This document shows, piece by piece, positions 4,760-32,000 of a stretch of 64,000 nucleotides of DNA (its first letter is position 1; every line of letters begins with the position of its first letter). A program made the translations under genes and the position numbers. The DNA comes from Bugulina stolonifera (taxonomy: Eukaryota > Bryozoa > Gymnolaemata > Cheilostomatida > Bugulidae), in the NCBI GenBank assembly GCA_935421135.1, contig OW285190.1, positions 14,270,501 through 14,334,500 on the forward strand. Reading direction: 5' to 3'. The notes under the pieces are model-generated. The model was not told the DNA's origin. It saw nothing but the letters and a program-made list of their open reading frames with translations, and ran no database searches.

Positions 4760-7700
4760 ATGCCAGCCAAATCAAGAAAAACAGCAGATAAGGAGTCTAT
4801 CTGGCAGAAGTTACGAGATGTTGATATAGAAAACCTTCATCAGTGTCATGTTGAGTATGTCTATAAACTCCAGCATGAACTAACGTGTTGTTTAGTCAGT
4901 GATAATAAAGGCGATAGCTATACATGTGCGAGAGAAAGCCGTATCAACGCCTCTGGGCATCACCCTTCTATGGCCAAAAGCTCTTCGCAGCAACCGTTTG
5001 TCCAGCTGGAAAGGACTAGGTTACCAAACAGTCACATTCACATTGGTGATCCTGAAAATTGCAACAGTGCATCTCCAAGCACTACAAATGGTGAAAGAAA
5101 CTGTGACACAGATAAGCCGAACGACCTGTTGAACGATGTAAGTAAGAATGCTACCTCTTTGCATTCAGAAAGCAAGAGGAATGTAATGCCTTTCAAATCA
5201 GATTTGTCTGGTGCAGAACAAGTTACTGGTACCTCTTCAACATCACAGCTGCATAAAAACTGTCGGTAAGTTTGTGGAAATTAACATCAACATTTTATTT
5301 GGTTTCACAAGCTTGTTTCTTCTAGCAGTAGCCATTCTGGTTCTTTCCATCATTTCAATTATTTTTATATTATTATAATGATTATAATAATAATATCTAG
5401 ACTTGCTAACTAGGCCGACATTCATAATAAAATACATTGATTTAATGGAGGTTCTATCTTGGCCGTTTTTCTTTAGCTAGCTATTATGTATGTGATCGGC
5501 AAACACAGTCTATTTAATTCAAAAAGTAAATTGTATGTGTTCTCTCTAGATACGTGCAAACAAAGAAAGCTAATAACATATTGAAACATTTTTCTGATGC
5601 AGTTGTTGATCGACTTATCAATGTATTTGTAGGAGGAACTGTGTAAGTGATCCATTTTGTGTTGCTGGTCTTGGGTTTGAAAAATGGTTTGCTGGTGATA
5701 TGGACTATGACTGGCCATCAGACGATGAAGATGATGACTGCCTTGTTAAACGGAAGAAAGATATCCCAGTGGGACTTGTGAATCTAGGGGCGACGTGTTA
5801 TGTTAACGCATTCCTTCAACTTTGGTATCACAACCTAGCCTTCAGAAATGCTGTTTTTGAATGGGGTCCAGATACCGGTTAGTGATTTAAATACCTCCTA
5901 TAAAATGAAATAAAACAGGCATGAATAGGCTTGCTGAAGGCTCAACTGAAACTTTATCTGTTACAAAATTATCACTAATAGTATCGGATTCAAATTTTTG
6001 CCTCAACTGAAATGTATAAAAATTTGTTGCAGATGACGGATTTTCTATATGTCATTCTCTGCAATATATCTTTGGGCTATTGGAGTTAAGCCATCGTAGG
6101 TAAGAGGCTTTATTACCAATCATTTTATGGAAAACCCTATACTTGAATATAAACTAATTTAAGGCTCACTAACTATGATGGCTGTTAGTAGATTTGTAGT
6201 TGGTGCATTGTTTTGACTTCTGACTCATACTGTGTTTATTAATTGACAATCACTTGTACTAGCCTCAGCCAAATGTGTCCTTTTTTAGACTTGACAGTAA
6301 AGTCTATCATTATAAGTGTTTTATTACATACGCAGCTGTGTGGACCCTTCATCACTGATACATGTACTCGGACTAGATGCCTCGTTACAACAAGATGCTC
6401 AGGAGTTCAGTAAGCTCTTTGTTGATCTGCTTCCGTATCCACAAGTGAAGAGTATGTTCTCTGGCAGCTATGATTATGTGACCAGGTATATACACGTACA
6501 TTGTACTAGATGTAACATGTGACCGGGTATATACTAGATGTAACACGCGACCAGGTATATACACGTACATTGTACTAGATATAACACGTGATAAAGTTTA
6601 TACTAGATGTAACACGTAACCAGGTATAATACTAGATGTAACACGTAACCAGGTATAATACTAGATGTAACACGTGATCAGGTATATACTACATGTAACA
6701 CGTAACCAGCTATAATACTAGATGTAACACGTGGTAGTATACTCTTGATGTAACATGAATGTATCATACTAGATATGCATGTTGATTATTCCAGCTGTAG
6801 CACTTGTATTGTTCAAGATGTTGTATTATTCTAGATGTAGCACATGTAAACAAGAATCTAGGACCTTGTCACAGTTCAATGAACTAGATCTAAGTATTGA
6901 ATCTCTCAACACACTCGACGATTGCCTCAAGTCTTTCCTCAAGGTAACTACAACCTTCTGTATTCTATTATATCACCTGTGCTCTGCTGTCATATCACCT
7001 GTACCCTGCTGTCATATCACCTGTACCCTGCTGTCATATCACCTGTACCCTGCTGTCATATCACCTGATCCCTACACTGTCATATCACCTGTATTCTGCT
7101 ACCATATCAATGCTTGTTCATTTCTGTAACAGATAGAGAAACTGACAGGAGACAACCAGTACTTCTGTTCAAAATGTCAGTCTAAACAAGATGCTAAGAG
7201 GAGGATTCAGCTAAGGAACCTACCACCTGTTCTCAATATACAACTACTTAGATTTGTATTTGACAGGTTGGTCATGTGTTATTCTTAATGCACTCATCGG
7301 TCTACCAGTTTAAATTTCTTGATGTCTATGTACGAGTACACTGGTCACATGATCCTTCCAGCTATGCTAGAATTACTAAATTATTACTTCAATGCTGTCT
7401 AACTGGTTGCAGAAAGACTGGACATAAGAAGAAGTTAAACACATGTCTACAGTTTCCTGACCATTTAGACCTGACCAGCCTAGTGGCTTCTAATGGAGGT
7501 AAGTCAACGAATGAGGAGACTGCTACATGTACTCATTATGATATGTAGTAATATATTCCTGTTCTCTACTCTCCTATCACATTCAGCGCTAATTTTTATA
7601 TATGACTGTATACCATGAAACCGGTTGATTGGTAACATAATGTATGTTTTGTTCAGCGGTTTTTCTTCCTAATAAATTTCCTAGATTGTGCATTCTACAT

Positions 7701-10700
7701 GTATATACACTTATGTACATGTGTATTTATATGTGCATGTGTATTATATGTATATGTATGCACAGGTATGTTGCATATACACTATCTACATCCGTATTGT
7801 ATGTGCATTACGTTGTACGTATTGTAGAACAACACCAGTATGAGCTGACCGCTGTGCTTATGCACTCAGGTGTATCAGCGTTCAGTGGTCACTATACGGC
7901 ACATATACGTAAACTTGATCACTGGTTCTCATTTAATGATGCTAACGTAGTCAAACTCAAGGGAAAGAAACTAAACCTAACTAATGAGGAGTCAATAGAC
8001 TACAATCCTGGTGAGTAATAATAGCCTGTAGTTCTATTGTAAAGGTGGCTTGGAGTGGTGGGACGTGTAATCAGAGGAATACGGCTGGGCCCTCAGCGAT
8101 ATAAGAAATGGGTTTTTTTTTTAGTGCAAGAAGACACCGTAGCAAACAGTTGAATATGTTTGCATGGGCTATTGTACTAGTATTGTTTTTTAGTTTACAT
8201 GCTACAGTAAATAGATAAGTGCTATGCTTGAATGAAATCAAATCTCAATTATGTTACTAAACTGTAACAGAGCAGGAGAGGGTGTGCCCCATACTTGTTC
8301 TACATTCTTTCACTTGGTTTATCCAACCATAGAAGTAAAGGTAACGCTCAGGACTTCTGTATTTTTTAGTACAAGTTTTACTTCTGCAGCTACCAGTTGT
8401 ACAACTCAATGGATTTGCATGTACAATGTATATACACCCATACAGTATAATATCTCTATATACCATAAGCCTTACCAACTGACTACTGTTATTATTGAAG
8501 ATGCTACGGCTAGTGTATCTAATGAGGGGAGAAAGAAAGGAAACAGATCTAAGAATGCATACATGTTAGTGTATCAGAATAAAGCTTTTATACAATCTAC
8601 TAAAGGTAGGTGAACTACTAGTATAATATAACTCTAACAGAGGGTAAAATGTGCCCTAACAGAGGGTAAAGTGTACCCTAACGGAGGGTTAAGTAAAATA
8701 GTGTACCATGTGCTGCTTGTACCCACTAGCACCATCATCCTTTACATTCCTTCACAAACATGGTGCAATTTGTATTATTAGTGGTGAATATTATACACCA
8801 ATTCATAAGCCTTTTACATTTACTACACTTGACATTAGTATTGTAGTGGTAATGGTAGTACAATATAACCATCTGGACTAGTCACTACAGTCATATGCAT
8901 GCAAGTGTATTGTGTACATTACAAATAATTGTACTGTTTATATACTACTGTTTAACTATCAGATCTACAGCCCAGCCCTGTACCTGAGAATATTAAACAG
9001 AGAGTGGAAGAAGACAATGAGAAGCTTAACTTCAGTAATCAAGATGCTGAGATAAAACAGGTGTGTCTGTCTGTCTGTCTGCATGCATGCATGTCTGTCT
9101 GCACGTCTGTCTGCACGCCTGTCTGCACGTCTGTCTGCACGTCTGTCTGCACGCCTGTCTGCATGCCTGTCTGTATGTATGTTGAATTGTCTTCACCTTA
9201 TGGACTGATGTACTGAAATTTTTAAGGTAATTATGTGACCTAGAATGTAGATAAAAATGACTAGAATTTGCTTCTCTTGACCTCATCACTGTATGTGATT
9301 TTACCACATGGCAGACTGAGCAGATGGTGAGAGTGGACATGAAGAAGGACCAGGTAAAGGAGCTATGGAATGGGCTGGAGGTGCCAGTGGACAGTAGAGA
9401 GAATTACTACATGCTGCCGGTCAGCTGGCTGACCGACGCGCTCAAGGACTGGGGAGACCTTGACCTCATAGACACTAAACCACTACTATGTAGACACAAT
9501 AAACTCAACTGGACACTCCACAGCAAATACAAGATCGTTTCTCAACAGAAGGTAGGTGTACGTCAAGTTCTATTGGATGTAATGAACAAAACAATTTCAG
9601 AATACCAAATCAAGTGTACATCAGCTGGTGGTATCCAGTTTATTCTCAATATCTCATTACATACCGTTATTTTAAATCTGCCGCTATTTGTCGGAAACTG
9701 ATTTGGACTGTTCCACTCAATTATTTTCTGTAGCATTCTCTTGGGTCTTTGTTAAATGATCACAGCCATAGCATAAACTTACCGGAGAGTTGGTGTGTAC
9801 GATACATTGTACATCGTGGGATAGAGTTCGTCTGTATGATACTTTGCAGGCTCGAGTCGGTGTTTATGATACATTGTAGGATGGCGTGTAATGATATATT
9901 ACATTGTAGGGAGAGTTTATATACAAGACATATGCTGGTAAAGATACGGTGGTGCTAAACAGAGATAACAGCCTCTGCTATGACTGTGTGAGGAATCAGC
10001 TGATCTGGAGAAGACAGAAGGAGAGAACAGAGACAGACAGCAAGAAGATCAGCAGTCTTATATCTACCAATACTTCTAATGCTACCAGGTGAGTGCGTGT
10101 ACGTGTACTTTGGTAATACTACTCCTACTACCAGGTATCTGCTATAGTATTATGGCAGGGTTGATGTTTTAGCTGTACTTGGTATGTTATGTTATGTATA
10201 TTTACACTATTGTAGTTATAACTAACATTGGTTAATTAAATATTGTAGTACTTAGTTTTTGAGTCTCAATGGTGGTGTCCCGATCAGAGCTATACACTAC
10301 TAGTTTTATCTATCAGTCACACTGGGAAGTAGATTATATAAACCACTTTTAGTTACAATTATTGTTATGTTTGTACTTATATCAACGCAGTTCCGTCCAG
10401 TATTGGGTGAGTAAATCAGAGCTGAGATGGTGGCGGTCCCTAGTACTGAAACCTCTGGAGAAAGATGCTCAGCCTACTTTAAAATCTGCAAATGATGGTA
10501 AGTTTTGTATTATTATGTATTTTATTATCCATTAAAGATACGATAAAACACTGCAACTGTTTGTAGTTATCTTCATCTGATAGGCTACATGAAATGATAG
10601 ATATTTAAGTTAGTTATCATGGCGCTCACTTCTTTTTTATGTCCCATACTGTGACCTTTTGTATTCAGGTGCACAAAGTTCTCACTGGTTTACTGTCACC

Positions 10701-13700
10701 TCGAAGAGCAAGAGCTGTAAATATTAGATGCATGAGTTATCTTGCAATTCCTAACTGAATGGCTTCATTATGAGTTCAGTGCAATTTTGTTTGGCTGATT
10801 GCCAATAGTAGTGAATACTAAAACGTTAGAATACAAAAGGTCACTAGAGTAATAGTCGGCATACTGCTTGTGGTACATGTATATCTGTGTCGAATTATTA
10901 ATTGCCAAGTTGGACTGTTTTATTCAGACAACGAGGAGAAATCCGAGATGAATGGAATAGATAGAGCTGGTTCCTCCACAGGCTCCAACTTAGCCACAGC
11001 AGGTTAGTCACTATAATGGAAAGTGGTTATCATCCACCCCCAATACTTGGTTTTACATGTGCTAAACCTCCAGGCTAACGGTAGAGCTATAATAAATCAA
11101 TTGAGTAACACTTCATTGCAAGTCTTCAAATTCGTAGCGTCACTGGTTGAGCTGTTTTTTGGATCTTGGTCCCAGTTCTATATAAAACATGATTTTGTTG
11201 AATTTAGTCATTTCTTATACCTGTATGTTCACTGGAACTCCCAAGTGAATCTCTGTCTAACCTGCTATTTATAGACAGCCAATCAGCATGTACTAATGGT
11301 CCTACAACCTCCAATGGCATTCCCTCTAGTGGTTCATCTCCAAATGAGCTGCTTATGGATGACACAGATGATAGATTCAACAGTGAAATTCTCTGTGAAC
11401 ATGGTCTGTGTATAATGTAGTATACAATGTAGTGTTTAATGTAGTTTATACTGTTAAAATGTAATGTATACTGTTAACGTGTGGTTGTATACTGTTAACG
11501 TGTGATGTATACTGTTAACATGTAGTGTGCAATGTAGCTTATAGTGGGGTATACCACATATATCTGGTCTACTTCACGTATTGTATATTTACTGTTCCCA
11601 GTAGGCGGTCACATCATGATCTAGGTTTAACTTTATATGTAACCTTTATGAAACTGAAGACCAATTTGGAGTTATCACCACCTTGTGCACTGGATAATAC
11701 CACATTACATTGGACACATTTCTCATATGTGGTGAATCATAACTCGCATGTAATTAACAGTGTAATGACCATTATTACTTGTATACCGTAGGTGAGCTAG
11801 CTACCACAGAGAAAGTCAGACAGCTCGTACCACAAGCAGCGTGGGATATACTACTTCACTACTTCCCTGATGCCGTTACGGTCACTAGTCAGCAGCCCAT
11901 ATGTGCAAAGTGTATGGTAAGTATCTACACTGCAGTATTATTACATATTGTATTATTATAATCTGTATTATTATACAAATGTATTATATTATAGGTCTGC
12001 TGGTATGTCGAATTGAGTTGTCAAAACTTTGCTTTGCAGGTTTCTTAGCAGGATTAGTATAACTTACGTCTCTGTAAATAAACCAATGATAGCAGCAATG
12101 CAAGGTGCTTGTGATAGATCTCATGGGTCACTTATTGGCTGATTGGACAAATGAGTTGTCTTCTCCTTCTACATGTCATGTCACAGCAGGTCACAGCAAG
12201 TCACAGCAGGTCACATCATGTCACAGTATCTCAGCACTCTGTTGTGTCGGATCAATGACTCAGTGTTACTGTTGATATGATGCAGGGAGATCAGGAGAAG
12301 ATGGCGAAAATTGAAGAGCAGCGTAAAGTTATGGTGAGGGAACAGAGGCAAGTGCTGTCAGATCTATCAGCGTTACGTAACCGTCCAATCATAGACTGCC
12401 TTGTAACAGATACAATATATTGTATGAGTCATACCTCCTACAAGCAGTGGAAACAGTTTCTAAGGTATGTGTCTCTCTCTGTACACAGTTCTAAATATTA
12501 CGTGGTTGATTACATAGCATTACAATTTAATCCTAGTAAGAATAATATTCACTATAGTATTTGTGGAGATTAGATACATATTGTTTATTTTGTAACACAA
12601 TTTGTGGTGGTATGGGTTGTATTCTAACGTATAAAATTCATCCAGTACCATATACATGTATTATACATTTTACATGTACACTGTTTGGTTTATTTACCAA
12701 CTATTGACTACATAGATGAATGTGTACTTGGACCTGTACGTCATGTATATGCACATGTACATGTATACGTACACGTATATGTATATGTATAATTATGTAT
12801 ATGTACACCTCTATGTATGTGTACATGTATGTCTACTGCAGGAATCCTACTACCCTGTCTGGCATCGAGACCATAGAGAACGACTCTGTCATATGTCCTC
12901 ACAGCAAGTTATGTGTTTATCCGTCCAATGACAACAGGTTTGTGTTTACACACCCCTGTCTCTCTCTAACATATTTTAATTCATTCTCTCTGTAATTTCA
13001 AACATCTTCCTCTATACCATGCAATAAGTTATTATAAGAAGAATGTACTGACCTTATGTATTTACATATTATACTTGGGTGGTCTTTACATACGACCTTT
13101 AGTATTTGTGGTAAGATTAAATGTAGCTAGTATATTATTTGGTGATGGCAAGCAATCAGGAACAGTGAATATTTTGTACACACAGAGCTAGCTTCTAATA
13201 TATTCACTGTTTATGTGTGATGTTTTAATTTACAGTATTGTACTTCTTTGGCCATACGAATGGGATCTAATCTCCTCCCACTTTCCTTGTGATGTCATCA
13301 TACAGGTCAAGGCTAGAAAAGACCACACAACAGATAATCATAGTACAGACAATATCCCATATCTCACCATACCAGGTGTGTATTTATATACAATGTACAG
13401 TACTAGTGTTCTGTGTTATATAGATATACATGTAGGTACAATACTAGTTAAGTATTATATGTAGATATATGTGCAATATACTGATGTTATGTGTTATGTA
13501 GATATAATCTAGTGTAATGTACAGTATGTAAAGTACTAGGGTTGTATGTTACATAGATATACGTACAATACTAGTATTATATTATGTTATATAGATATAT
13601 GTACAATACGTCTAGTGTTGTGTTATATAGATATATGTACAATACTAGTGTTGTGTTATATAGATATATGTACAATACTAGTGTTGTGTTATATAGATAT

Positions 13701-15882
13701 ACGTACAATACTAGTATTATATTATGTTATATAGATATATGTACAATACTAGTGTTGTGTTACATAGATATATGTACAATACTAGTGTTGTGTTATATAG
13801 ATATATGTACAATACTAGTGTTGTGTTATATAGATATATGTACAATACTAGTGTTGTGTTATATAGATATATGTACAATACTAGTGTTGTGTTATATAGA
13901 TATATGTACAATACTAGTGTTGTGTTATATAGATATATGTACAATACTGGTGTTGTGTTATATAGATATATGTACAATACTAGTGTTGTGTTATATAGAT
14001 ATATGTACAATACTAGTGTTGTGTTATATAGATATATGTACAATACTAGTGTTGTGTTATATAGATATATGTACAATACTAGTGTTGTGTTATATAGATA
14101 TATGTACAATACTAGTGTTGTGTTATATAGATATATGTGCAATACTGGTGTTGTGTTATATAGATATATGTACAATACTAGTATTATATTGTGTTATATA
14201 GATATATGTACAATACTAGTGTTGTGTTATATAGATATACGTACAATACTAGTGTTATGTTATATAGATATATGTACTGAGTGCGTACAGTCCAGGCTAA
14301 TATCAGAGGAGTTGGAGTCTCATGTCTTTGATAATGCCAGGATATACATCAGGCTACTAGACAACGACAGCAAAGACGATGCAGACAAGGATAAAAATGG
14401 TAAATCCAATCACAGTGCTTCAGTCAACACTTCCACCACAGAGGATGATGAGGTATGTTTGTTGGCAGACTGCCAATCGCGGAGACGCTTCTTACTTGAT
14501 CTTACATACCGTTATGTACGATAGCTGCCATATTGGATTGTCGATATTGCATTAATAATATTGTAGACAGTTGATTGATCAATCTGGAAGTAATGTTACA
14601 TATTATATACTGTGGAAGGAGCTGTTTATATTCGTATTGGTAATTCCGAGTCCGTTTTATTTTGAGGTTACTCTGCGATGTATGTGCACTATTTACATAC
14701 AATATATATATATACTTTCTTCTCCTTGTATGATCATATGACTCAAAATTTTCACTCAAGGTAAAGTGAAAGTCTTCCCAGTGACTTAGAATACTTGTTA
14801 ATGCGTAAACAATACTGGAGAATAATCAAGTTTTGGTTTAAAACAGCCCTTGGGGAATTTTAATCCAAGTTTTGAATCCTCTCCTATCCGAGTACTAGCT
14901 CATTGTTTGTATTGGTACTTCCATATCTCCTCCAGGTGCCTCCAGAGTCCAAGAAAGCTAAGCTGGACCACCCACCAGAGGATATTCTACACACCATACC
15001 CTTAGCTGTCCCTACGTTACAGAGACGCTCAGGCCGACGTAAGCACGTGAGGGGTGATAAGAGTTTGAAGGTTTCCTCATCGCTGAAACTAAAGGAACTC
15101 AGGGTGGAGGTGAGAGAGTGAATGTAGATATACATGCAGTCCATCATTATACGTGATGCTTCAAGTGGAATATTAGGGTATATCATACATGTTGTGGTGT
15201 ACCCTGTGATATATTAGGGTATATTTATATATTTATGGATATGTTGGTGTTTATTTCAGCTTGTGAAACTGTTTGCTATCGCACCGTTTGACCAGATACT
15301 ATCATTAGATGGCAGGAAACTCGAAGGTGATGATAAAAGTCTTGCCGAACTAAAACTATACCCAGACTGTCTTCTTTTTCTGAAGGTACGTAATTAGGCT
15401 AGAAACAGAAAATAACTATCCATTTCACCAAACTTATAATACAGTCTATTCAATATAATTAGACTATAGAACAGTTCCCCATTTAGTTGAGTTCCTCTCT
15501 CAGGTGGGAGGCTCAGTAGGTTGCCTGGTTTATTCACACTTTACACAAAGTAGTAGTGGCCTTCAGGTATTCTGTATAAGAAATATGTATGTACTATTTC
15601 TATAATAACATGTTTTAATAAGGCCCTTGTAATTATTAGTAGTGCGTAGTATGTACGTCTTAATAATTTATGCTTTGACCAGTGGACCCGAAGCTGTAGC
15701 ATAGCATATAATACTTGTTACTTGTTATACACACATGTACATGTATGTTTTAGGGTGACATATATGATGATGGGAATCTAGAACAAGCTATTCTACACCA
15801 AGGACTCATGGAGGAAGGATTTAGGGGTACTGGACTACTAGCTAACACAGATGATATGAGAGATAAAAACTCCATACAGTAA
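4760..15882 (+). CDS. USP48: Ubiquitin carboxyl-terminal hydrolase 48
   Basis: Exons: 4760-5265, 5633-5877, 6033-6099, 6336-6485, 6835-6943, 7133-7266, 7413-7498, 7828-8010, 8501-8605, 8963-9060, 9315-9551, 9910-10088, 10391-10497, 10928-11002, 11275-11403, 11792-11916, 12286-12464, 12842-12937, 13236-13375, 14268-14452, 14936-15109, 15260-15385, 15754-15882. They sum to 3564 nt, 1187 residues; human USP48 is about 1035. The peptidase C19 Cys box is NLGATCYVN (Cys224) and the His box is SGHYTAHI (His454) followed by FNDAN. Zinc-knuckle CxxC pairs lie at 324/327 and 371/374. DUSP-type domains span about residues 562-960, a ubiquitin-like domain about 1046-1145, and the C terminus keeps EEGFxGTGLL. 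The family removes ubiquitin from substrates, including nuclear ones. Exon 1 carries an extra low-complexity insert of more than 100 residues before the conserved CRRNC. The ATG at 4760 is the first in frame. An alternative exon-2 acceptor at 5549 would hit a stop after about 30 codons. Confidence 0.95.
6476..6760 (+). repeat. Tandem array anchored on the USP48 exon-4 donor
   Basis: Exon 4 ends ...GTGACCAG with intron GTATATAC. The following about 275 bp repeat this junction degenerately (TAACACGTGACCAG|GTATATAC, TAACACGTAACCAG|GTATAATAC and so on) about eight times at 28-41-bp spacing. Each unit also carries CTAGATGTAACAC, which resembles the acceptor and first bases of exon 5 (CTAG|ATGTAGCAC at 6835). 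The units therefore look like tiny pseudo-exons flanked by both splice signals. Confidence 0.85.
6960..7105 (+). repeat. About 23-bp minisatellite in USP48 intron 5
   Basis: Six or so degenerate copies of CATATCACCTGTACCCTGCT fill most of the 189-bp intron. It does not copy a splice junction. Confidence 0.85.
9061..9180 (+). repeat. TGTC-rich microsatellite at the USP48 exon-10 donor
   Basis: The intron starts GTGTGTCTGTCTGTC and continues as TGTC/TGCACG repeats for about 120 bp. The repeat begins at the exon edge itself. It is open in several frames on both strands but not coding. Confidence 0.9.
9780..9909 (+). repeat. Degenerate array anchored on the USP48 exon-12 acceptor
   Basis: The real junction is ACATTGTAG|GGAGAGTTTAT. 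Upstream lie about four diverged copies with the same order: an exon-start-like GGAGAGTTGG, GGATAGAGTTCG, GCTCGAGTCGG or GATGGCGTG, then a TGATACATTGTAG-like acceptor. Spacing is about 30-37 bp. Confidence 0.65.
13395..14277 (+). repeat. 33-bp minisatellite anchored on the USP48 exon-20 acceptor
   Basis: At least 20 near-identical 33-bp units occupy 13.59-14.27 kb, with more degenerate copies from about 13.40 kb. Each unit reads ATATATGTACAATACTAGTG then TTGTGTTATATAG. The last TTATATAG is the real acceptor (AG 14266-14267), and exon 20 itself starts ATATATGTAC, which is the first ten bases of the unit. Because 33 is a multiple of three, the array makes long open frames on both strands that are not genes. 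Confidence 0.95.
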
Positions 15883-17289
15883 GACGTCTATGAGTATAGC
15901 ATGTAGCCTATATGTGTATATCTATGTTATAATATGTCTAAGATGTCTGCATTAGTAGACCTACCTACCATGACTTATAATTCCTATTTATGTGCAATTC
16001 AAACCTCTGATATGTTTTACAAGTAAAAGATAAGGTACGGACTATCACTTCACCAAACAATATATTCATTTTAATATCGACGGTTGGTTGGAATCAGTTA
16101 TGTAATTTGTTAAATTGATATCAAAAAGTGTAACAGTTGCTTTATATACTATTTGCTATTATTAGAAACTCCCTCTACTGCAATGGGAAAGTAGAGTATT
16201 TGCTCATATTTGTAAACTAGCCGGTTCATCTCCGACAGAGTAAGTCTATTTTTTAAAATGTTTGTTGTCTCAAACCTCAACTCGCGCAACTTGTCCCTGA
16301 TAATAACAGAAGCCTTTGCCAGTATATTAAGTTTTATTCTAATTACATGTAATGTTGTTTTATAGTATCTAAATTAAATGAATGTATTTTGTAATTTAGT
16401 GCTAAACAAGTTGTCAGGGGGAATGGTTCACGAGTATTTTCCTATCGTACGGTACACTCTAAAGAGTGACAAGTCATATCTCAATGGTTTTGCTTTACAT
16501 TTGTCATATGACTTTTAATATAACTATGAAAAATATAGTCTTTTATATAATAAAATGTATTATTCGTCATTCACTCATCCGTTTTGTTAGTTCAGTGAAA
16601 ATTCGCTTCTCGGACCAAGTTTAGTTGTTCCCTATACATGTAATAAAGCAGCATTTAATTAAAAGGCGGCTCTCTTGCACGTATGCTGACCCAGGTGCAC
16701 CCAGTGCTGATCCCATTGGCAGCATTGGCCAGTCGGCTACCTAATACAGTTGGTCAGCTCATCCGTGCACTGCTCCAATACATGTTTTATTACCTGGAAA
16801 TTTATTAAGAACTTTCAACGTATCGTTTATGTTTATCCATTTGAATTCAATTGCTCAATCACTATGCATTGATTTGGTGATATAATTATTTCAATTCAGT
16901 TTCAACGGTCATGTTTTGATAGTATTTTACAATAGTCAAATTTCTATCAATTACACAACACCAACAATTTGCTGAATTTGTAAACGTTTCAATTTTCTTT
17001 TAGAACAATAGAGTTAAAAGAACGAGCAGTCATTGAAACTCATTCTGTTTAGTTAATTGAATTGTTAAAATAATAGTGTTACGATACACACACCTCTATC
17101 CAGTGTATTACGGTTGCTAACATGGATATCTAGTACAAAAACACTCAGTGTAGTTTGGCCAGGCAAATCCTACGGCGTCTTTTATACCGCTAGTTACCCT
17201 TGTTTAATATAGAGATAGTGTTGTTTCACTAAAACTAACTTCATTGACTAAGCAATTAGCTTCGATGTATAGACAGAAATCGAAACAAT
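15883..17289. other. Intergenic spacer, USP48 to the 29-exon gene, with exon-like segments
   Basis: Contains the USP48 3' UTR and the next promoter. Two segments are locally richer in GC and look exon-like: 16168-16241 (an AG acceptor, 74 bases open in one frame, then a consensus GTAAGT donor) and about 16660-16805 (open on both strands). I could not join them in a common frame, so no gene is called. Confidence 0.4.
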
Positions 17290-20200: not shown

Positions 20201-23200
20201 ATTACCTTCTTTACCAACCTGTTAGTCTGCACACTATGCATTCATTCAGTTTTCACAGGTCTATATGTACCTGTATCTAATAATATACATATGACCTGAT
20301 TGACTCAACCAGTTTATTTTGTCAAAAACTCGTAACTTGTTGACTTTAATTATTATGCAACAGTTAATTTGAATAAAACTAATTTCATGTAAAACTGTTT
20401 CAACTAAAAACCTTTTATTAGTTTTGTAACTGACAGCTATAATAACAACCAATAACCAAGACTGTTTAGCAATAAACAAGTCATGCGTCCATAGAGTTCT
20501 GTTCCCTGTACTTCTGCTGTAGGTAAAACATGCACTTGTTCTGATCAGCCTATAATTATCTACCAATCGTCATCACAGTATTGTTAGCTGTGGAGAGGAG
20601 CCTGCAGATTTAGGTTTTAAACATTGCGCAACATTAAAACTATTTTCACAGTTTACATTTTAGACTTGAATAGTCAATTCTATACATTATACTTTTTTTC
20701 AATTCTTTGATATATACGAAATCCTTGTGTATGTTTTACAGCCGTTCGTGCCGTGAAGACGTACATCAGAACAAAGAGTGGCAATATAGTGGAGAGGGTT
20801 GTCTTCCTCTCCGCAGAAGATTATGAAAAGTTTACTAAAGGGGGTGGTAAGGCTTCAGATCTTCTAAAGAAATACCTCACTAAAGAAGAGGCTGGAAACC
20901 TCGAGTCGTGGGACAAAGAGGAGGTAGCTCATAGATTACCCATTTATTGTATGCTAATAGGCCAGGGGTCGACAAGGTATAGTTCTTTGGCGAGTTCAGT
21001 ACTGCCTTTTTATAAAAAACCAAAATGTCTAATTTGTCTCAAATTTATGTTGATAAGAAATTGTTCCAAGAAAGAATAGTCCTAACTTGTCATTAAATTC
21101 ACATTAGATAATAATTAGTAGGTGGACCCAATATGGTTAAAGGGTACTTTAGAGTGGCACATGACTTGTAAAAATGACTAAAGGTTTGAAAATCGATACA
21201 GCAGTTAAAAGGTTTGCCCATTCCTGCTATTATGCACCTGTGTACACTGCAGGTTTATGTTGAACAGGAAAGTTAGGTATGACAGTACAGTATTAGTAAT
21301 TGGGTCACTCTAGCTAGTGTCTAGAGTGAGCTTCAGACAAACTGTAGATGTGATCACAGGCTACTGGATGGAGAATTATGCAACGACTATTCACCTTTAG
21401 CTAAACACATTATATATACGACCATGGTTTATACTATAATTGCCAATACAGTGGAATGGTGAAGTTTTTGTTGTTGAAATGGAGTTGTCGTCTCTGTTAC
21501 TGTTATGTGCAGATAACTCCCGTTTAATGAAGTTTTCACAGCTTTTGAATAATATGGTATCATCGGTATGTTTTCTATGTTGAGAAACTGATATATTATG
21601 TTATTGCAAGTCGTCATGTTCCACATACATGTATATATCCGAGGTTTATGTATATGTTGTGTCTAGGTAAAGATGATCAAGACATTTGTACGAACAAAGA
21701 GTGGTAGGCTGAAGGAAAAGATGGTGTACGTTAGCAAATCAGATTACGATAAGATTAAAGCTGGTGGAATGGAAACGAAGGAAATGATGAAGATGTTAAG
21801 TAAATATGTCAAACCAGAGGCAGGCGAACAGATAGATGGGTGGGGCGAGGCAGAGGTGAAACAGGTACGTCATGATGTGATACAGTGTTTACATACATGT
21901 ACATGTTGAATCTTATTGTTCAAATGAAGTCTTTTATCTTCTACTAAGCTCTACATGTATTTAGTAAAGATATAATAGTTTGGTATATAATGCAGTTCCC
22001 ATGTTTGTTTCACAGCAACTCATGAATAGCCAGCATAATAATATAATACAGCATGTTTGTTCTTTGAGTTGAGTCAGGTTTATAGGAATACCATTTACAT
22101 GTAGTTGTCATTATTTAATCTTATTTTAATTTAGATACATTCAGTCTAATTTATAAATGTCACGTCCAGTGTAGGGACTATCATGATCTTTAGAAGTTAT
22201 TTGTGTACTTCATCGATAACGCAGAATCTTCTAGAATCTTTAGTGTATTATTCCGTGACCTTGACCTTCAGATAAAGACTATGGTGAGAACGAAGAGTGG
22301 AAGAATGATTGAGAAGACAATAATGGTTAGTAAGGAGGAGTATGAGGAACTGCAGAGAATAACTAAGGCTGGGGGAGACCCTTCCACTGTGAGTAGTCAA
22401 TAGAATAGCCTCTGTTCCACTGTGAGTAGTCAATAGATTAGCCTGTGTTCCACTGTGAGTAGTCAATAGATTAGCCTGTGTTCCACTGTGAGTAGTCAAT
22501 AGATTAGCCTGTGTTCCACTGTGAGTAGTCAATAGATTAGCCCGTGTTCCACTGTGAGTAGTCAATAGATTAGCCTGTGTTCCACTGTGAGTAGTCAATA
22601 GATTAGCCTGTGTTCCACTGTGAGTAGTCAATAGATTAGCCCGTGTTCCACTGTGAGTAGTCAATAGATTAGCCTGTGTTCCACTGTGAGTAGTCAATAG
22701 ATTAGTCTCTGTTCCACCGTGAGTAGTCAATAGATTAGCTTCAGTTCTAAAAGTATTAGCCTACCGTCCAGGTGAGCCGATAAGCCGTTGGGATTTACTT
22801 CGGTATTACACATTTAGAATTCTATGACTGCATGTATTTAAATAGTTCTGTACATACTTGTCCCGCAGATACTGAAGAAATACATGGGTAGGGATGAAAA
22901 GGTAGAGAGCTGGCAAAAAGTAAAGAAGACATCTAAGGGTGGAGTCGCTCCCCCACCCAAACCTATGAAAGTGATTAAAACTATGGTTAGGACTAAAAGT
23001 GGTAGAATGGTGAGTTGGTCAATCAAAGATAACAGCACATATCACGAGTTTTAACAGTCGAGTTCTCTTGATTTCGATTTGGCATTGACAACAGAAATGT
23101 AAACTGTAAGACATTAAATGACTATATAGATTTATAATGACTTCAGAAGCTGTTTTCACCAACTCCAAATTTTTTAGCAAGAATAAGTAAGATGGTCTTG

Positions 23201-26200
23201 GGAGACTCGCTACTATAAATACACAAATTATATTACTCTGGTCGTATTTCTTGAGGCTTCTGGCTATATTTCAATAATAACAGTATAATTCTTTACATAA
23301 TATGTTGAACCAGTAAAATATGTCCTTGTCTCTCCTACACACAAGTTTTAGTTATGTGTTAAACTGTGAACTACGTTTTTTTACATGCAAAAATTTACAC
23401 TGCGCTTGTATTACACAACACCATACTAATATGGTGGAGTTGTCCTCTCAAGTCTATAGAGAAGGCAACTTCTACACATTTAGAAATGACGCGCAATAAT
23501 GTCCTATGGTTAAATAGCTCATAATATTGATAGGTGGAGAAAACGATTATGATGACAGAGGAGGAATACGCTGAGTTTGAGAAAGCTGGAGGTGGTAAAG
23601 AGGCTCTAAAGAAGTTCATGAAGCTGGAGAAAGGGGAGGAGCTAGAGACGTGGGAGAAGGCCAGCACCGTCTACGCAGACGAAGATTCAGATGCTGACGA
23701 GATCATTCAGCAAGCAGCAGCAGGTGGGTGCAGTTATCTCCTCTTTATAGAATGCACTGGACTTGATTGAAGTAATATAATATTGCATGTGCACATACAA
23801 TGCACCTACTGTGCTGTAGGTCAGAGACTGGTAGGTGATGACGGTATAGTGTATGAAGTCGTTATCGATGAGAAAACTGGAAAGAAATACAAGAAGTAAG
23901 TAGCAGTAATAGTACAAGTGCAGTCAGTGCATGTTTACTAGTACTAGTGCTAGTGCTTTGTAAGTAATAGTGTAAAGTAAGAGTATTACCACTGATATCA
24001 GTACAAAATAGACACACCCAGTAGTTTACTTTATATACATCTAAGTTTTATTATAAGCCCACATTTTGTATGCAATTATTACAATACAATATAGTCAAGG
24101 TATATGATAGTACTTACCACTAGCGTTACCATGTATCATAATGCTACATCACACTACATGAAGTGTAACTGCTGTTTAGAAAGCTGGGTAAGGCAGCAGA
24201 CTTTGAGGATCTGGATGATCTACTAGCTGGTGGTGATGGTGGTGAGTACTATGGTACAGATGGTAAGGGAGTAACTGGAGGCAAGGGCAAGAAGAAGAAA
24301 GGTCAGTAATAGGTCACTCAGCTTTTCCAGTGAGTTGAGTCCTCTTCGCTAAGAGGAGTAGACAACTTCAGCTAATGCAACATACTAGTATTACCAATAG
24401 GAAAAAACATTTCCATGCCATGCATGTGGGCATTATATTATGTTGTCATAATTTTATTACAGATGTTGCATATTACTGTAGCCTACATGTCCATGTGCGT
24501 GTATGTAAAATTACGTGTACTTTAATAATAATACGTGTAGATAGGTTTGCTTAGCAGTTCCCAGTGAATTCAGTGACTCTATAACTGATTTTAGTAAGTT
24601 TGCATTAGTATCTATGTGATGTCTTACTTCATAAAGGGAAAGGTAAGAAAGGGGCGGATGACGACAGTGATGATAACTATGATGAGTTTGGTAATGTACT
24701 GCCCAGCAAGGAGGAGGTGAAGAAATACAAAGCTATGAAACAAGGTCTACGTAATGACAATTCCGACTCTGAATTCAGGTAAGCTGTATTATAATATTGA
24801 TGTCTGTAGAACCAAACCAATACTCTCAATGCTTCTGTACTCTTGTTACACATGTCATAGTATATATTTAGATTCTGGCAGAGTTGTCTGTAACATACTG
24901 GTTGATATTCTAAGATGACTTCAATACTATGATGTAACAGATATTTATCTTATATATAAGTGTAAATCCAAAATTGGTTTTTCTGTTAGCCAAAGGCTCA
25001 TAAACAACTTTTTACAAAACATTCTGATTTGTCTCCGCTTGGTCATCGCTATTATCATACCGGTATTGTATGTTGACAGTTACCGGAGTGTGTACAGTGC
25101 AGGAGGTACCAAAAAGGTGCTACGTAAACGTAAGAGAGGGGACGGTACATACTCTGCAGAAAAAGAGTACGACGAGGAACAGGATGAAGAGGGGAAAGCG
25201 AGACGCAGACAGCGTAGGAGGGAGAGAAAGCATGGAGCTGGCAGTGCTCACAGTTACTATAGGTAGGCATACACATGTATCCATAGTAACTGTATGTGAT
25301 CGACTGCAAGTATCTAGTAACTACATATACATGTACCTGTAGTTAGACATACACAAGAGTAGTATCTGTTGTAATTGTAGGTAAACATACACATACAATA
25401 CACATGACTTGTATCCATAGTAACTGTAGGTAATTATGTGCAGTTCCCCATAATTGCCGGTAGTTTTTCCATCAAAGCAGAATCAAAGCTCCAAGATAAA
25501 TGCGCAGCTTTCATAGTGTTACATAATAAAGAGCACTTGGGCTGAGGTGTCGCAGATACAGCTACATTTGTATATACCTGCATATAGAGTATTTTTGTAA
25601 CATTGAGATGACTAGATTGTTGGTGGAAACTAATCGTCATGGTTACTAGTAGTAGATAAATACTATATGTGCAATTACTGCTTCACACGTGCACTGCATG
25701 TAATAACAAATAACATTACATTACAGAGGACATAACTGCATAGAGTAGCATGGGTGAAAGTGTAATACATGTATACACTAGGCTCTACCATACTGTAAAG
25801 CATAAAAAGGACAAAATATCATGCACACAACATGTAGTTACTCAACGCTTATGTACTGATATGTACACCCCATAGCGTCTCATCTTCTCTTGCAGTGTTG
25901 TGAGCGCTGGAGGTACCAGAAAGGTGAAGAGACGCAAGAGAAACGCTGACGGTACGTATGGTGCTGAGGAGGACTATCACAGTGCTGACAGCGATATCAT
26001 GAAGAAGGCCGATAAGAAACATAAAAAATCAAAGAAAACAAAAAGAGTCCATGGAAGTGACAGTGAGCATAGGTGAGTGACTCTTGCGTGAGCAAAGGTG
26101 TGGCCGCAAATAAGTGTAAAGGAAGTTTCTGCTGCTCACATGTATATAAATTATTTCCCAATTATCCTTGAGTAACACCAAGAGTCACGTAGTAACAACA

Positions 26201-29062
26201 TCAAAATTTACGTGTGTGCTGTGTTGTCACCTTATAGTTACCGAAGTGTGGTCAGTGCAGGTGGCACAAGAACTAGAGTACGCAGGAAGAGAATCAGGGA
26301 TGCTGATGGAAAAGTTATTGGACATGGTGAAGTGCAAGTTTATGAATCTGGTAAGATACACATACACAGGTTCTCTGTGAAGCATCAAATTTCTATACCT
26401 ACAAAAAAAGCAAAAGTCTACAGCACCTGGTATTCCCAGGCGGTCACCCATCCAAGTACTAACCAGGCTCAACGTTGCTTAGCTTCAGTGATCGGACGAG
26501 AACTGGCGTTTTCAACGTGATATGGCCGTAGACAATCGATGTGTAGTTATTATAGTTGTTATAAGAATCGTATGCCCGTCACGCTTGACGAGCAACAATA
26601 TGATTGGTTGAAAACAAAACCATTTATTATGCGCGGCTATTAGGTTGATAGTAGTCGATCATCAAATGTCTACGGCCATATCACGTTGAAAACGCCAGTT
26701 CTCGTCCGATCACTGAAGCTAAGCAACGTTGAGCCTGGTTAGTACTTGGATGGGTGACCACCTGGGAATACCAGGTGCTGTAGGCTTTTGCTTTTGTTTT
26801 TTGTGTGTTAGCAAAGAGATCCCATATTAGTATTATCCATAAACTAATGAATCTCTATACTTTGTGCTATTTATCAATTATTTTTAGGCTTGTTCGTTAT
26901 CAATATTGCTAAATTTTAACCAATATATATCAATTATCTCAGATTACATGTTGTGTTGTGGATGGCTATCGTGATTGTGTGTTCAACCTCTATCTTTTGT
27001 ATCTACCTTATGAACGGCATTTACTCACTACTAATAAGGTGTCAAGTATACATTATAAATCGAGGGTAAATTCAAGGACATGCGAAAAACCTCATTGATA
27101 TCTTTGGTAAAGGGATGTTTCAAAAATGTCGGTTAGAAACAGGACGTTCCGAAAACGTTTGTTTGGGGTTTAGGGCTCGAACGTTTTCGAAATGTCCTGT
27201 TTCTAACTGAAACTTTCGAACAGTTGCAAATTCGATATCTTCATACTAACTACACAACACAAGTGGTAGTATTAGCCTAAATATGTAAGTACATGGTCAT
27301 GTCACAGTTTATAATATTATTATAGCACAGTAACAGTCTTTATTCTCATACCAATACTGTCATTCGTTTTGGATATGTATGATTACAGAGGACGAATCAT
27401 TGGAGAGTTTTATAGATTCTTCTGGCAAGAGAGTTGTGCGTCCCAAACCATCCAAAGATGGTAAGGGAGGCCGAGGGAGAGACAGAAGAGGACGGGATGG
27501 AAAGGAGAGGAAAAAACTTGGTAAAACTCGAGACCATTTCAAAGGAGGCTTTAGGTTAGTATCTCGTACCTGATGGTTAAGCTACAGCTAGTGGAAGGGC
27601 AAACTCATTATAAGAGAGGGGACAACTACGCATGGTTGTGGATTGTATTGTACAAATTTTAATTATGCATAAATGATACCATAATACCGTATAGTTGCTA
27701 GTCGCTAATTGGCTACTACTGTTTCCATAGAGATAATATAAATGCATGAGAAGAACAAGGAAAGGCCCCATTTCAACTGCAAGGTACATTCTATGTGAGA
27801 TCAGAACATGATTTTATAATAACACCAGTATATTATATTGATCATCTACTTTGTCACTCAGTGACAACTCCACAGACACCGAAGATGAACCAGATCTTGA
27901 GAACATGACTGAGGCAGAGAAGAAGGAGTATCTGGCCAAGAAAGCGGAGAGAAAGGCTGCTAGGGATCAGCGACGGAGAGAGAAATATGGAGACAAGTAT
28001 GATGAGGTGATGGCTAAGCATGAGAAGTAAGTCTAATACAGAGTCTAATAGTCTAGAAATGACGTAGTTTTCTAACGCATTTAATTTCTCACCTCCACTG
28101 CCTGAAGATTCATTTGCTCTCATTGTTTGTTTGTTTGTAGAAATAAGAAGCAGTTGAGAAAGGAGAGAGCCATAGCTGAGGGCATAGACTGGGACTCAGA
28201 CGAGTACGAGGCAGACCCTGAGGGTTTCAAACAAAAGTACAAGAGTATGGTGACTTATGACAAGGCCTCAGATAGAGGTCTCACTAAGAAGGGCAAGTCT
28301 GATAGTAGGAGTCTAGGACCAGGACACGATGAGTTAGTAGTTAAAATAATCCATTGGCTTATTTTTGTTTGCATTGTAACGTTTCACACTCTATCTAATC
28401 GGAATAAAAGACATTTGTATCAATCAATTTATATAATGTGATACATAATGGTGAATTGGGACATGGTTGCATGTACGAGTATATCTTCTACATAATGATT
28501 TTTTGCTGTGTTTCAAATGGGTAATTTCGACTCGAGACTTACAATGTAGCTCCTACTGTGAAGTACAAATGAGCAAATTATTCTCAGTAAGAGGGAATTA
28601 CATCTGGAATATTGATTCGTTGCAGCTGGGGATCAACTGGAGGAAAGAAAGTCAAGAAAATTCTGAGGAAAGATGGAGATGAATCAGATTATGAATCAGG
28701 AGGTAAGTACATGTACATGTATATACGGTAGTACAGGTACCTAGTAATCAGTCAGTAGGTAAGTATATGCAGTAGTACAGGTACCTAGTAATCAGTCAGT
28801 AGGTAAGTATATGCAGTAGTACAGGTACCTAGTAATCAGCCAGTAGGTGAGTATATACTGTACAGGTATCTAGCAATCAGTCAGTAGGTAAGTATATACA
28901 GCACAGGTACCTAGTAATCAGTCAGTAGGTAAGCATATACAGTACAGGTACCTAGTAATCAGTCAGTAGGTAAGTATATACAGTACAGGTACCTAGCAAA
29001 CAGTCAGTAGGTAAGCATATACAGTACAGGTACCTAGTAATCAGTCGGTCAGTCAGTCAGTC

Positions 29063-29098
<36 letters not shown>

Positions 29099-32000
29099 TA
29101 TACAGTACGTAGGATAAATATTATATTAGTATTCAGTAGTTGCTATCATACTACATGTACATATTAGTACAGTAGTTGTTCCCTCTTAACATGTGATGCT
29201 ATAGAGAAAGGACAACTTTAAATGAAACTTTTAACTGCTCATACACAATAATGTAGCATATGATTGTGTAGTTCATAACACACACTGACTTGTCGAGCAT
29301 ACATGTAAGTGTGTGCTAAATAATAATACAAGTGGTACATACATGTATGCATGATACTACTACATGTGCAGTGTATATGAATACGCACCACAGAATATAA
29401 TGGGTATATTATATAGAATGAGTTGTTACCTTTTGTACTTGTAGAGGAGAGATATGGAGGGAAGACTAAGCATAAGGGGGGTAAAGGAGGAAAGGGTAAA
29501 GGAGCTGGTGAATATCAGAGCAGTGACAGTGGTAAGTAAACAAGCACCTGTAGTGCATGTCCCTAACTATTTGGTAGTAAGTAGACAAGCACCTGTAGTG
29601 TGTGCCCCTAACTATTTGCTGGTAAGTGACCAAGCACCTTTTAGGTAGCCATGCAAGTGTTTCTCACTCCCTATTCTATTGGATATTTTAGAGTTGTGTT
29701 ATTACCACTATGTTATTGCATTTGTTGCACAGGCGAGTCCTTCATTGGTGTTGACGGTAAAAGGAAGAAGAAATTGCGTAAAGGAGTGGACGAAGTCGTA
29801 GAAAGTGACTATGAGTATGAAATCGTGAGTTCCTACTGGTCTTAGGTTATCATTAGGGTATGACTATCACCCCCTCCTTATGCTTTCAAGTCTAGGGTTG
29901 CGTAGAACCATAGCTATCCTTAGCTAATAGATATTATTATCAAATGCTGATGACATTCACCAAATATTACTTGAAAAAGAAGCAAATGTTTTTGCATCTG
30001 TCTTTTCACCTCATATATGCAATTCGTTGAGAGAATTCTGTGTGCGAAGCAGTAATTTCATCCACTTGGCCTGCCTGCCAGCCATTCCCATTTTGAACTT
30101 GTTGCTACTTTACATTAATTAATGCGTTACTTTTATATTATATATTATGCGTTGTATGTTATTATATATTCTATATTCCTCTGTCTGGCCACAGGAATAC
30201 GATGAGAAAGGCAGAATAAAGAAGAAGAAAAAGAAGTACCATGACGGAGAGTCAGGGTCCGAGTACGAGTATAACTATGACGAACATGGTAACGTTATTG
30301 GTAAAACCAAGATTAAAGAAGGTCTCAAGGCTAAGAAGCATATCACTAGGGATAAATTTGACAATGATGATGGAAATTATTTTGAAAAGGTAAAACCATG
30401 ATTGTAACATATCAGCTTATTAGTCTCAAATCTCTGATGCTCTGATAGTTACCAGAGAATTTAAAACTACTAGCGAATAGTTGTACAGTATCCAGTTAAC
30501 ATTTTCAATAGATGTTAGGGTTAAAGGTTGCAAGCACTTGGCTTCTGTCTGCGTACCATTATATCGATCCGCAGTGAGAACTACAAATCTGGTAAACATT
30601 GAGAAGTTAGACTTAGAATTGCTACACTTATTCTTGTTGTTAAATGTGTTATATTTGACTTCTCAGGGTGCTGATGGAAAGATGAAACTAAAAGCTGGTA
30701 AAAAGAAAATAGACATAACTAAGTTATCTAAAGATGACCTTAAAGCTCTTGGCATCGATCCAAATATGTCTAAACAGGATATAGCCCGAGCTCTAAAGAA
30801 ACAGTTCGGAGAAGACATAAGAATTATGGAAGGGGGTCAAAAGGTGATAAATTAGGATAAAATGAGCAAAAGAATGTGCAAGTTTCAGTAGTTTTGCTAT
30901 TGTTGCTATACTACCATATTATGTTTCTACAAACATCTACAATGCATATAGTCTTATATAAGCTTTTCGAACTTCTCATAAAGCCGGTTTACGATATACA
31001 TGTAATAATAATATTGTGTGTGTACATACTATAATATAACGCTGGACGCATATAATGTATGCACACATGGGCTTGCATTCACACATATAAACACCATATA
31101 CAATCAGTTGAAAAATTAAGCCCATCCATATGATTTCATGGTCTTTGTGTTTGCAGGTTGGCCTAAAGCAAGCCCGAGATTTTGCTAGTGATTTAGACAC
31201 TGACGATTTAGCTGGTGACAGTGACCTTGACACCTCAACCTGTAAGTTTAGCCTTAGACACTACATTATAAATATATACTTTTAACAATCTTTAATCACC
31301 AATACATAGTGTCATTTTTAATAGCACCTCAACTCTGTTATATCGTAGGAATATGCCTAGAAATTTGTCATATCTTACAACTGTTGCAATTGCAGCATTG
31401 AATAATACCATTTTTGTTCATTGTTAAATCCAGAGTTTCCAGTTCACCAGTATATGGTTGTATAATAACTTTTGTTAGAGGTCTAAGCTGAAAGACAATT
31501 TCTGTTGCAGTGTTACCTGGCAAGCGTCGTGTGAACATCCTGATGAAAAAGGGAGGTAATGAACTGCTGGGGTACATGAAGAAACTGGTGGAGGATTCGG
31601 CTCTCATTCAGCAACCTCTGGAGCCAGAACAGAACGCTGGGATAGACTATCTCTCGGCCTACAGGCTGGTGGATCAGAAAATGATAGACGGATATGCACG
31701 AGCATTCGTTGTAGAGGATCAGAGTAAAACTGGAATTGTCCACTATAAAGTGAGTGATTCACTGACGCCTGCTACGTTACATATTACGTTAGCCTGACAT
31801 GTTACGATACATGTTCCGTTACATATTTGATGTTATGTAGTGTCATTAAGTAGCCTTAGTGATCATTAAATAACCTTGCTGGTACTGGTGACCCTCTTCA
31901 ATGATCCAATCAAAACTAACAATACTTTGCGGGGTCGGGGTGAAAGAACATCCAGTAATAGATGAATAACAGTATACTTACTATACTTTGTAATAGTAAA

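What the first reader, a model, noticed from the sequence alone, without database searches (positions are those of the whole stretch)
6476..29645. Tandem arrays seeded exactly at splice junctions in at least seven introns of two neighbouring genes
In USP48 (introns 4, 11, 19) and the 29-exon gene (introns 7, 13, 19, 20) an array starts at the donor or ends at the acceptor. In several, the unit includes 7-10 exonic bases plus the splice site, so the real junction is the edge of an array of copies. Random intronic minisatellites would not repeatedly use the exon border as their boundary. This suggests a recurrent process, such as repair of breaks at junctions, slippage, or R-loop linked duplication, that grows introns outward from splice sites. 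It could also protect splicing by redundancy.
Basis: partly seen in the sequence, partly recalled or inferred. Interest (0 to 1): 0.8.

Follow-up and report, generated by a model that had tools for sequence, protein, structure and literature searches.

The report
Tandem repeats spanning bryozoan splice junctions
In this moss animal, some short tandem repeats include the edge of a gene's coding piece together with its splice signal, so one intron can hold many copies of the same signal; the same kind of structure is known from lancelets as 'mirages', and here a repeat-rich genome can explain most of it without a special process at splice sites.

Summary
USP48 introns 4 and 19 and introns 7, 19 and 20 of the second gene carry arrays whose outer copy is the real splice junction. 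Orthologues from another bryozoan support the exon borders and show that the last of 21 exact copies in USP48 intron 19 is the true acceptor and that intron 4 units carry both splice sites. The other two cases are weak. Similar arrays occur in other genes. Amphioxus has the same structure, named 'mirages' (PMC3087553, PMC3902484). A junction-specific process is not needed: outside the window I found 6 donor-spanning arrays, with 5.45 expected if arrays arise uniformly and are tolerated. Tests of bias disagree: array starts near donors are 1 to 5 times expectation depending on threshold; donor word AGGTAAGT starts a tandem triple in 12.6% of its occurrences, a matched word in 1.67%; a second donor word gives only 2.6-fold more hits. 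Best reading: a known kind of structure in a new phylum, mostly neutral.

The parts
6478..6846 (+). USP48 intron 4 (6486-6834) with its junction-spanning array; units carry donor, acceptor and a 17-base exon-like piece between them
9061..9176 (+).
13376..14267 (+). USP48 intron 19, mostly a 33-bp array; the last copy holds the real acceptor at 14267|14268
22382..22739 (+). Gene 2 intron 7 array, 33 bp x 10.8, unit = 7 exonic bases + donor + intron head (intron 22389-22868)
25263..25895 (+). Gene 2 intron 13, named in the finding; repeat at the donor not clearly above chance
28696..29105 (+). Gene 2 intron 19 array (intron 28703-29444), repeated TCAG(T/G)AG|GTAAGTA donors
29532..29639 (+). Gene 2 intron 20 array, 45 bp x 2.4, starts exactly at the donor (intron 29532-29732)
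5633..15880 (+). USP48 gene, 22 modelled exons, 1018 residues, no stops (5' exon or exons not included)
17290..33464 (+). Gene 2, 28 modelled exons, 1411 residues, uncharacterised protein; 73% identity over 91% of the query to Watersipora subatra

Best explanation
These are junction-spanning minisatellites of the kind called 'mirages' in amphioxus. The genome makes tandem duplications at a high rate outside exons. Now and then the duplicated stretch includes an exon's end, the splice site and some intron. The cell keeps using the outermost copy, because only that copy joins the right coding frame, so the extra copies become intron and the array can grow and shrink by slippage or unequal exchange. 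Shown: the anatomy, exon borders that agree with a relative, repeats made of exonic plus intronic bases, presence in other genes, ordinary array density. Inferred: use of the outermost copy, neutrality, slippage or unequal exchange.
For: Tandem-repeat cover of the window (4.6%) is like that of two stretches chosen by coordinate (5.5%, 7.6%). Outside the window 6 donor-spanning arrays with 5.45 expected from array density x unit length x donors. Probes at junctions outside the window match their own intron no more often than interior probes: 4 of 175 against 7 of 154. Units are local: the intron-7 unit is found only there, and the donor-motif arrays listed have different units. In gene 2 introns 7, 19 and 20 and USP48 intron 4, reading past the donor meets a stop within 16 codons, so later donor copies would give broken messages. 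Exonic overlap ranges from 0 to 32 bases, as expected of arbitrary breakpoints. Donors and acceptors (USP48 introns 4 and 19, USP39, a MAK-like kinase) are both affected.
Against: Array starts within 13 exonic bases of a donor are 7 with 2.15 expected from intron interiors at the laxest gene threshold (P 0.007), outside the window 4 with 1.66 (P 0.09), one of these being a doubtful gene; at stricter thresholds 5 with 1.68, 3 with 1.24 and 1 with 0.78. AGGTAAGT starts a tandem triple in 12.6% of its occurrences, a dinucleotide-matched word in 1.67%. The window itself has 4 with 0.82 expected. Four of the six outside cases come from the 33.5 kb of ubiquitin-hydrolase loci, two from the 250 kb chosen by coordinate. 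No RNA was examined, so which copy is used is not shown.
Confidence: 0.6

Rival explanations
1. Junction-directed seeding: strong donors themselves attract or provoke tandem duplication (for example through transcription- or U1-linked stalling), so arrays are born at splice junctions more often than elsewhere in introns.
For: Start profile: 9 array starts (7 after dropping two doubtful genes) in the last 13 exonic bases, 1.74 per kb, about 0.45 per kb beyond 40 bases into the intron. AGGTAAGT: 2254 triple hits among 17,835 occurrences; matched word AAGTAGGT 162 among 9,701. Of the first 15 fully listed AGGTAAGT arrays on C1, 8 begin at a donor that closes a coding-like stretch. Two introns in a row of a WDR54-like gene have donor arrays.
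Against: 6 found with 5.45 expected outside the window. Starts are also raised 4-40 bases inside introns: 0.87 and 1.51 per kb. Repeat cover next to donors (3.3%) is lower than deeper in introns (10-12%) in 92 high-confidence introns. The other donor word, AGGTGAGT, has 1116 hits and its matched word 427; by distinct places in the capped listings it is 7 and 8 for the first 16.3 Mb of C1. In the sample GTAAGT ranks 269th and GTGAGT 1459th of 2988 six-letter words for being in arrays. Control words differ almost 20-fold among themselves. Two of the 15 arrays hold the motif antisense to a gene.
Confidence: 0.25
2. Selected redundancy: extra donor copies help splicing or guard against loss of the site, so they are kept.
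For: In three arrays not chosen by motif, the nine donor columns of intronic copies carry 2 minority letters in 234, the rest of the unit 15 in 486.
Against: Few arrays, few changes, no formal test. Later donors lead into stops in four of the window's introns, so they cannot stand in for the first. Older-looking arrays (USP48 intron 4, gene 2 intron 19) show donor copies decaying.
Confidence: 0.07
3. Intron birth: some of these introns arose by tandem duplication of an exonic AGGT-containing segment (the Rogers model) and the array is what is left of it.
For: In a condensin-like gene (L043) and in L046, 32 and 29 of the repeated bases are exonic; USP48 intron 4 units carry acceptor, exon-like piece and donor.
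Against: In the condensin-like gene the intron goes on for about 110 bases beyond the array to an ordinary acceptor. No intron positions were compared with other species.
Confidence: 0.06
4. Wrong gene models or assembly artefact.
For: My first models put two USP48 acceptors at wrong places.
Against: Corrected models are open and agree with Watersipora at the named junctions; the published assembly was made with HiFi reads.
Confidence: 0.02

Closest known systems
Amphioxus 'mirages' (minisatellite-like tandem repeats spanning exon-intron boundaries: Adh3, globins BflGb6 and BflGb9, PGBD5, troponin C)
   Same: Tandem units made of exonic plus intronic bases with the splice site; donors and acceptors both affected; unit lengths overlap (Adh3 10-72 bp); authors report that regular splicing is not disturbed (passages of PMC3087553 and PMC3902484 read)
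   Different: Other phylum (Bryozoa); seen here in many genes of one genome; up to about 22 copies; length polymorphism and RNA use not tested here
Human internal tandem repeats at exon-intron boundaries in segmental duplications (PMC2812944)
   Same: Tandem repeats at exon-intron borders that affect gene structure (passages read)
   Different: There the repeats vary between recent paralogues and can form new introns; here no paralogues or new introns were shown
[quoted passage not shown] potato RdRp, PMC4974935)
   Same: Duplication of a segment with AGGT splice signals (passages read)
   Different: New introns there; here no evidence that the introns are new
Ordinary intronic minisatellites
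   Same: Local units, high identity, same genome-wide density
   Different: Unit includes the exon border

Membership tests
Amphioxus-type mirage | Tandem repeat whose unit spans an exon-intron boundary | tested here: met
   Exonic overlap 7-8 bases in USP48 i4, gene 2 i7 and i19; about 10 at the USP48 i19 acceptor; 4-32 in cases elsewhere. Gene 2 i20 only abuts the donor (0 bases)
Amphioxus-type mirage | Authentic exon border is the outermost copy | tested here: met
   Open frames and Watersipora alignments for the window genes; by protein likeness only, not RNA
Amphioxus-type mirage | Copies retain AG/GT splice signals | tested here: met
   Copies listed; some copies have lost them
Amphioxus-type mirage | Regular splicing of the mRNA in spite of the copies | not testable with these tools
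   No RNA reads held
Amphioxus-type mirage | Length instability between alleles | not testable with these tools
   Alternate haplotype GCA_935421085.1 exists but is not held here
Intron gain by tandem duplication | Intron absent in outgroup orthologues | not tested
   No annotated relative genomes at hand
Intronic minisatellite of neutral origin | Junction arrays no commoner than density x unit length | tested here: inconclusive
   6 found, 5.45 expected outside the window; start-position and motif tests point partly the other way

The most novel reading that the evidence does not exclude
In this bryozoan the strongest splice donors are genuine hot spots for tandem duplication: introns grow outward from the exon border by copying exon tail plus donor, linking splice-site chemistry or transcription to repeat birth, and producing introns with rows of identical donors or acceptors among which the spliceosome must pick one end copy.
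Probability: 0.25. Interest if true: 0.8.

Novelty: new member of a known kind. Interest (0 to 1): 0.5.

Why it matters
Introns with about 10 to 20 near-identical donors or acceptors, of which only the end one fits the frame, are natural test pieces for how the spliceosome chooses among competing sites. They also put the amphioxus mirage into a second phylum, in a chromosome-level genome with public RNA reads and a second haplotype, so both the origin of such arrays and their use can be tested directly. If a donor bias is confirmed, it would tie splicing or transcription to repeat birth.

Tried and rejected

It recovered most exons of the two genes, but placed the USP48 intron 4 and intron 19 acceptors wrongly, outside the arrays. 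Its acceptor counts (1 with 5.5 expected) are therefore biased, and I do not claim that acceptor arrays are purged. Two of its donor hits (C1 29474, C2 35018) look false and were dropped from the six; C1 55252 was added by eye, as was gene 2 intron 19 in the window.

Other enrichment tests, in full: arrays moved at random over non-coding DNA, donor-edge 9 with 3.54 expected (P 0.012), outside the window 6 with 3.18 (P 0.11), arrays scoring 100 or more 7 with 1.79. Array edges against random places with a donor-like signal and coding score: 15 with 11.1, 10 with 6.35, 2 with 2.77, 0 with 1.29 at rising thresholds. Start density at four gene thresholds, repeat score 50 or more: 7/2.15, 5/1.68, 3/1.24, 1/0.78 found/expected; outside the window 4/1.66, 3/1.29, 1/0.93, 1/0.73. 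Junction probe against own intron, score 16 or more: donors 7 of 48 in the window genes and 4 of 175 outside; acceptors 1 and 2; interior probes 7 of 45 and 7 of 154. That test used the uncorrected acceptors of USP48 introns 4 and 19 and leaves out the 28 bases next to the probe, so it misses short units.

Confinement of the exonic part to 13 bases, suggested, was dropped: cases with 19 to 32 bases turned up.

A genome-wide number of arrays was not estimated: the place listings of the pattern searches are capped, and their order is not clear to me (one search lists plus-strand places only, minus-strand places only near the contig start). Counts of distinct places from them are therefore rough.

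Two further matched-word controls (AGTAAGGT, AAGGTAGT) did not complete.
Full report
What and where. The window lies in an assembly of 234,951,659 bases in 27 contigs. Contig lengths held here (36,811,656; 20,271,823) equal the longest scaffold and N50 of Bugulina stolonifera tzBugStol2.1, and the sizes of chromosomes 1, 2, 5, 6, 10 and 11 agree (PMC10213821, passages read); the paper gives 234,982,697 bases in 30 scaffolds, so three small ones seem to be absent here. The window is chromosome 4, 14,270,501-14,334,500. The two genes are USP48 (UCH domain E 3e-38; 62% identity to Watersipora subatra USP48) and an uncharacterised protein, 73% identical over 91% of its length to one of Watersipora, with relatives among others in molluscs, annelids, nemerteans and amphioxus and no Pfam match.

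Borders. Gene 2 reads through 28 exons without a stop, and at each of the four named introns Watersipora reads on without a gap: PST|ILKKY, HSYY|SVVSAGG, DYESG|EERYGG, SSDS|GESFIG (the first three introns of the gene are not covered by that relative). USP48 needed correction. My first model lacked two conserved residues at intron 4 and a conserved C..C pair at intron 19. Acceptors at 6835 and 14268 restore VT|RCSTCK and [12 protein letters not shown] and give 1018 residues without a stop. Both true acceptors lie inside the arrays, which my gene finder had avoided.

Anatomy. Gene 2 intron 7: the exon ends CCTTCCACT and ten intronic copies of (G)TTCCACT|GTGAGTAGTCAATA follow every 33 bases, the last with one change. 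With up to 3 mismatches the unit is found 11 times in the genome, each time here. USP48 intron 4: repeated blocks ...CTAG|ATGTAACACGTGACCAG|GTATATACTAG|..., with an acceptor, 17 exon-like bases and a donor; the head resembles exon 5 (ATGTAGCACATG) and the tail exon 4 (TGTGACCAG), as if a segment from the end of exon 4 to the start of exon 5 had been repeated (my reading). USP48 intron 19: 21 exact copies of TATATAG|ATATA with first exonic base from 13424 to 14268, of which the last fits the protein; the exon's frame stays open for 555 bases back into the array, so use of an upstream copy could add open repeats. Reading past the real donor in gene 2 introns 7, 19 and 20 and USP48 intron 4 meets a stop within 16 codons. 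Of the seven introns named, five are firm, one (donor 9060) is a simple run that starts at the donor, one (gene 2 intron 13) is not clearly above chance. In the probe test the donor sides of USP48 intron 19 and gene 2 intron 19 were not above their null maximum by more than one point either; I call them firm because of the copies themselves.

Elsewhere in the genome. I fetched 200 kb of C1 and 50 kb of C2 chosen by coordinates alone, and eight loci with ubiquitin-hydrolase matches, 33.5 kb. Six further donor-spanning arrays were judged real by eye: C1 78546 (15 bp x 12; exon with a weak match to peptidase M2, E 0.0014, below the cut-off), C1 55252 (39 bp; no Pfam match), L003, two in L004, and L008 (39 bp x 9, 97%). 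So four of six come from the hydrolase loci. A search for three AGGTAAGT words 8-38 bases apart gave 2254 hits, the reversed word 50. Of 16 places visible in the capped listing, the last was cut off; I fetched 500 bases at the 5' edge of the other 15. Eight begin at a donor that ends a coding-like stretch. Of these, two have good homology (L043 condensin Cnd3 E 2e-25; L047 topoisomerase III, PDB E 1e-9), two a family match below its cut-off (L037 WDR54 E 0.001; L034 MENTAL E 7e-4), and four rest on an open frame (L035, L038, L040, L046; weakest are L038 with 13 residues and L040). Two have the motif antisense and end at an acceptor: L039 (USP39, PDB E 2e-8) and L041 (protein kinase E 3e-9). 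In three the array runs on past the fetched end (L036, L042, L045); in two I saw no coding (L044, L048). I then fetched eight stretches on the far side. They show a plausible next exon for L035, L037, L043 and L047, a second donor array in the WDR54-like gene (L050), a donor array at the other end of the USP39 intron (L055), and no donor array at the other end of the kinase intron (L056); L051 and L053 were not clear. These readings are by eye, and flanks of control arrays could not be fetched.

More than chance? The tests disagree. (a) Frequency: non-coding DNA outside the window has 0.457 arrays per kb with mean unit 37.2; if arrays arise uniformly and donor-spanning ones are kept, 321 predicted donors should show 5.45; found 6. 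In the window 4 of 48 with 0.82 expected, but this window was picked for them. (b) Position: array starts within 13 exonic bases of a donor, found/expected from intron interiors at four gene thresholds: 7/2.15, 5/1.68, 3/1.24, 1/0.78; outside the window 4/1.66, 3/1.29, 1/0.93, 1/0.73 (one of the seven and of the four is a doubtful gene). The profile has 1.74 starts per kb there (9 starts, two from doubtful genes), 0.87 and 1.51 at 4-20 and 20-40 bases inside the intron, and about 0.45 further in. In 92 high-confidence introns repeat cover is 3.3% in the first ten bases and 10-12% beyond 40. Probes at junctions outside the window match their own intron in 4 of 175 cases, interior probes in 7 of 154. 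(c) Motif: AGGTAAGT starts a tandem triple in 2254 of 17,835 occurrences; TGAATGGA 50 of 10,478; AAGTAGGT, same dinucleotides, 162 of 9,701; TGGATGAA 9 of 10,143. The other donor word AGGTGAGT gives 1116 hits, reversed 127, matched AGTGAGGT 427, and 7 and 8 distinct places for the first 16.3 Mb of C1 in the capped listings. In the sample GTAAGT ranks 269th, CAGGTA 70th and GTGAGT 1459th of 2988 six-letter words for occurring in arrays. Controls differ almost 20-fold, so composition matters. I conclude that tolerance of uniformly born arrays is enough for most cases, and that a moderate bias towards the strongest donors is open.

Mechanism. Shown: exon border bases are inside the repeated unit, the outer copy is the junction that fits the protein, units are local where tested. 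Inferred: tandem duplication with arbitrary breakpoints (exonic part 0 to 32 bases), later growth by slippage or unequal exchange, use of the outermost copy. In three arrays the donor columns vary less than the rest (2 of 234, 15 of 486), too few to argue for selection.

Known or new. The amphioxus literature names this structure 'mirage' (Adh3, globins, PGBD5, troponin C; passages of PMC3087553 and PMC3902484 read; the original Adh paper, PMC117041, is not held). It reports length instability and undisturbed splicing there. Human repeats at exon borders and intron gain by tandem duplication are related (passages). A search for bryozoan + intron + tandem repeat gave four papers, none relevant by title and start of abstract; a Flustra genome paper has no mention of introns or minisatellites (term search); the listings of searches, some of them capped, showed no bryozoan report of this kind. 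So: a known kind of structure in a new phylum, seen in several genes of one genome.

Noticed in passing
window 26415-26533 (-) and 26668-26786 (+): Two full-length 5S ribosomal RNA genes in inverted orientation inside intron 15 of gene 2 (Rfam RF00001, 116.6 and 115.8 bits).
   Followed up: partly
C1 0-1.4 Mb and 36.0-36.8 Mb: In the capped listing, AGGTGAGT triple arrays crowd near both ends of chromosome 1 (6 places in the first 1.4 Mb, 5 in the last 0.75 Mb, 8 between), perhaps as subtelomeric minisatellites do in other animals (recalled).
   Followed up: no
window 3388-3463: A 30-bp coding repeat giving YDVPAAVDVN-like repeats in the tail of the first gene of the window (translated by eye).
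   Followed up: no
C1:5,055,129-5,055,262 (sample C1 55129-55262, minus strand): Junction array with a 39-bp unit that is open in the exon's frame, so use of inner donors would lengthen the protein by 13 residues per copy without a stop.
   Followed up: partly
C1:763,101-772,544: A satellite-like array with 44-bp steps over about 9 kb, seen in the AGTGAGGT listing.
   Followed up: no
window 17290-33464: Gene 2 codes for an uncharacterised protein found mainly in lophotrochozoans, with internal repeats of the type MVRTKSGRMVEKTIMMTEEEYAEFEKAGG and no Pfam match.
   Followed up: no
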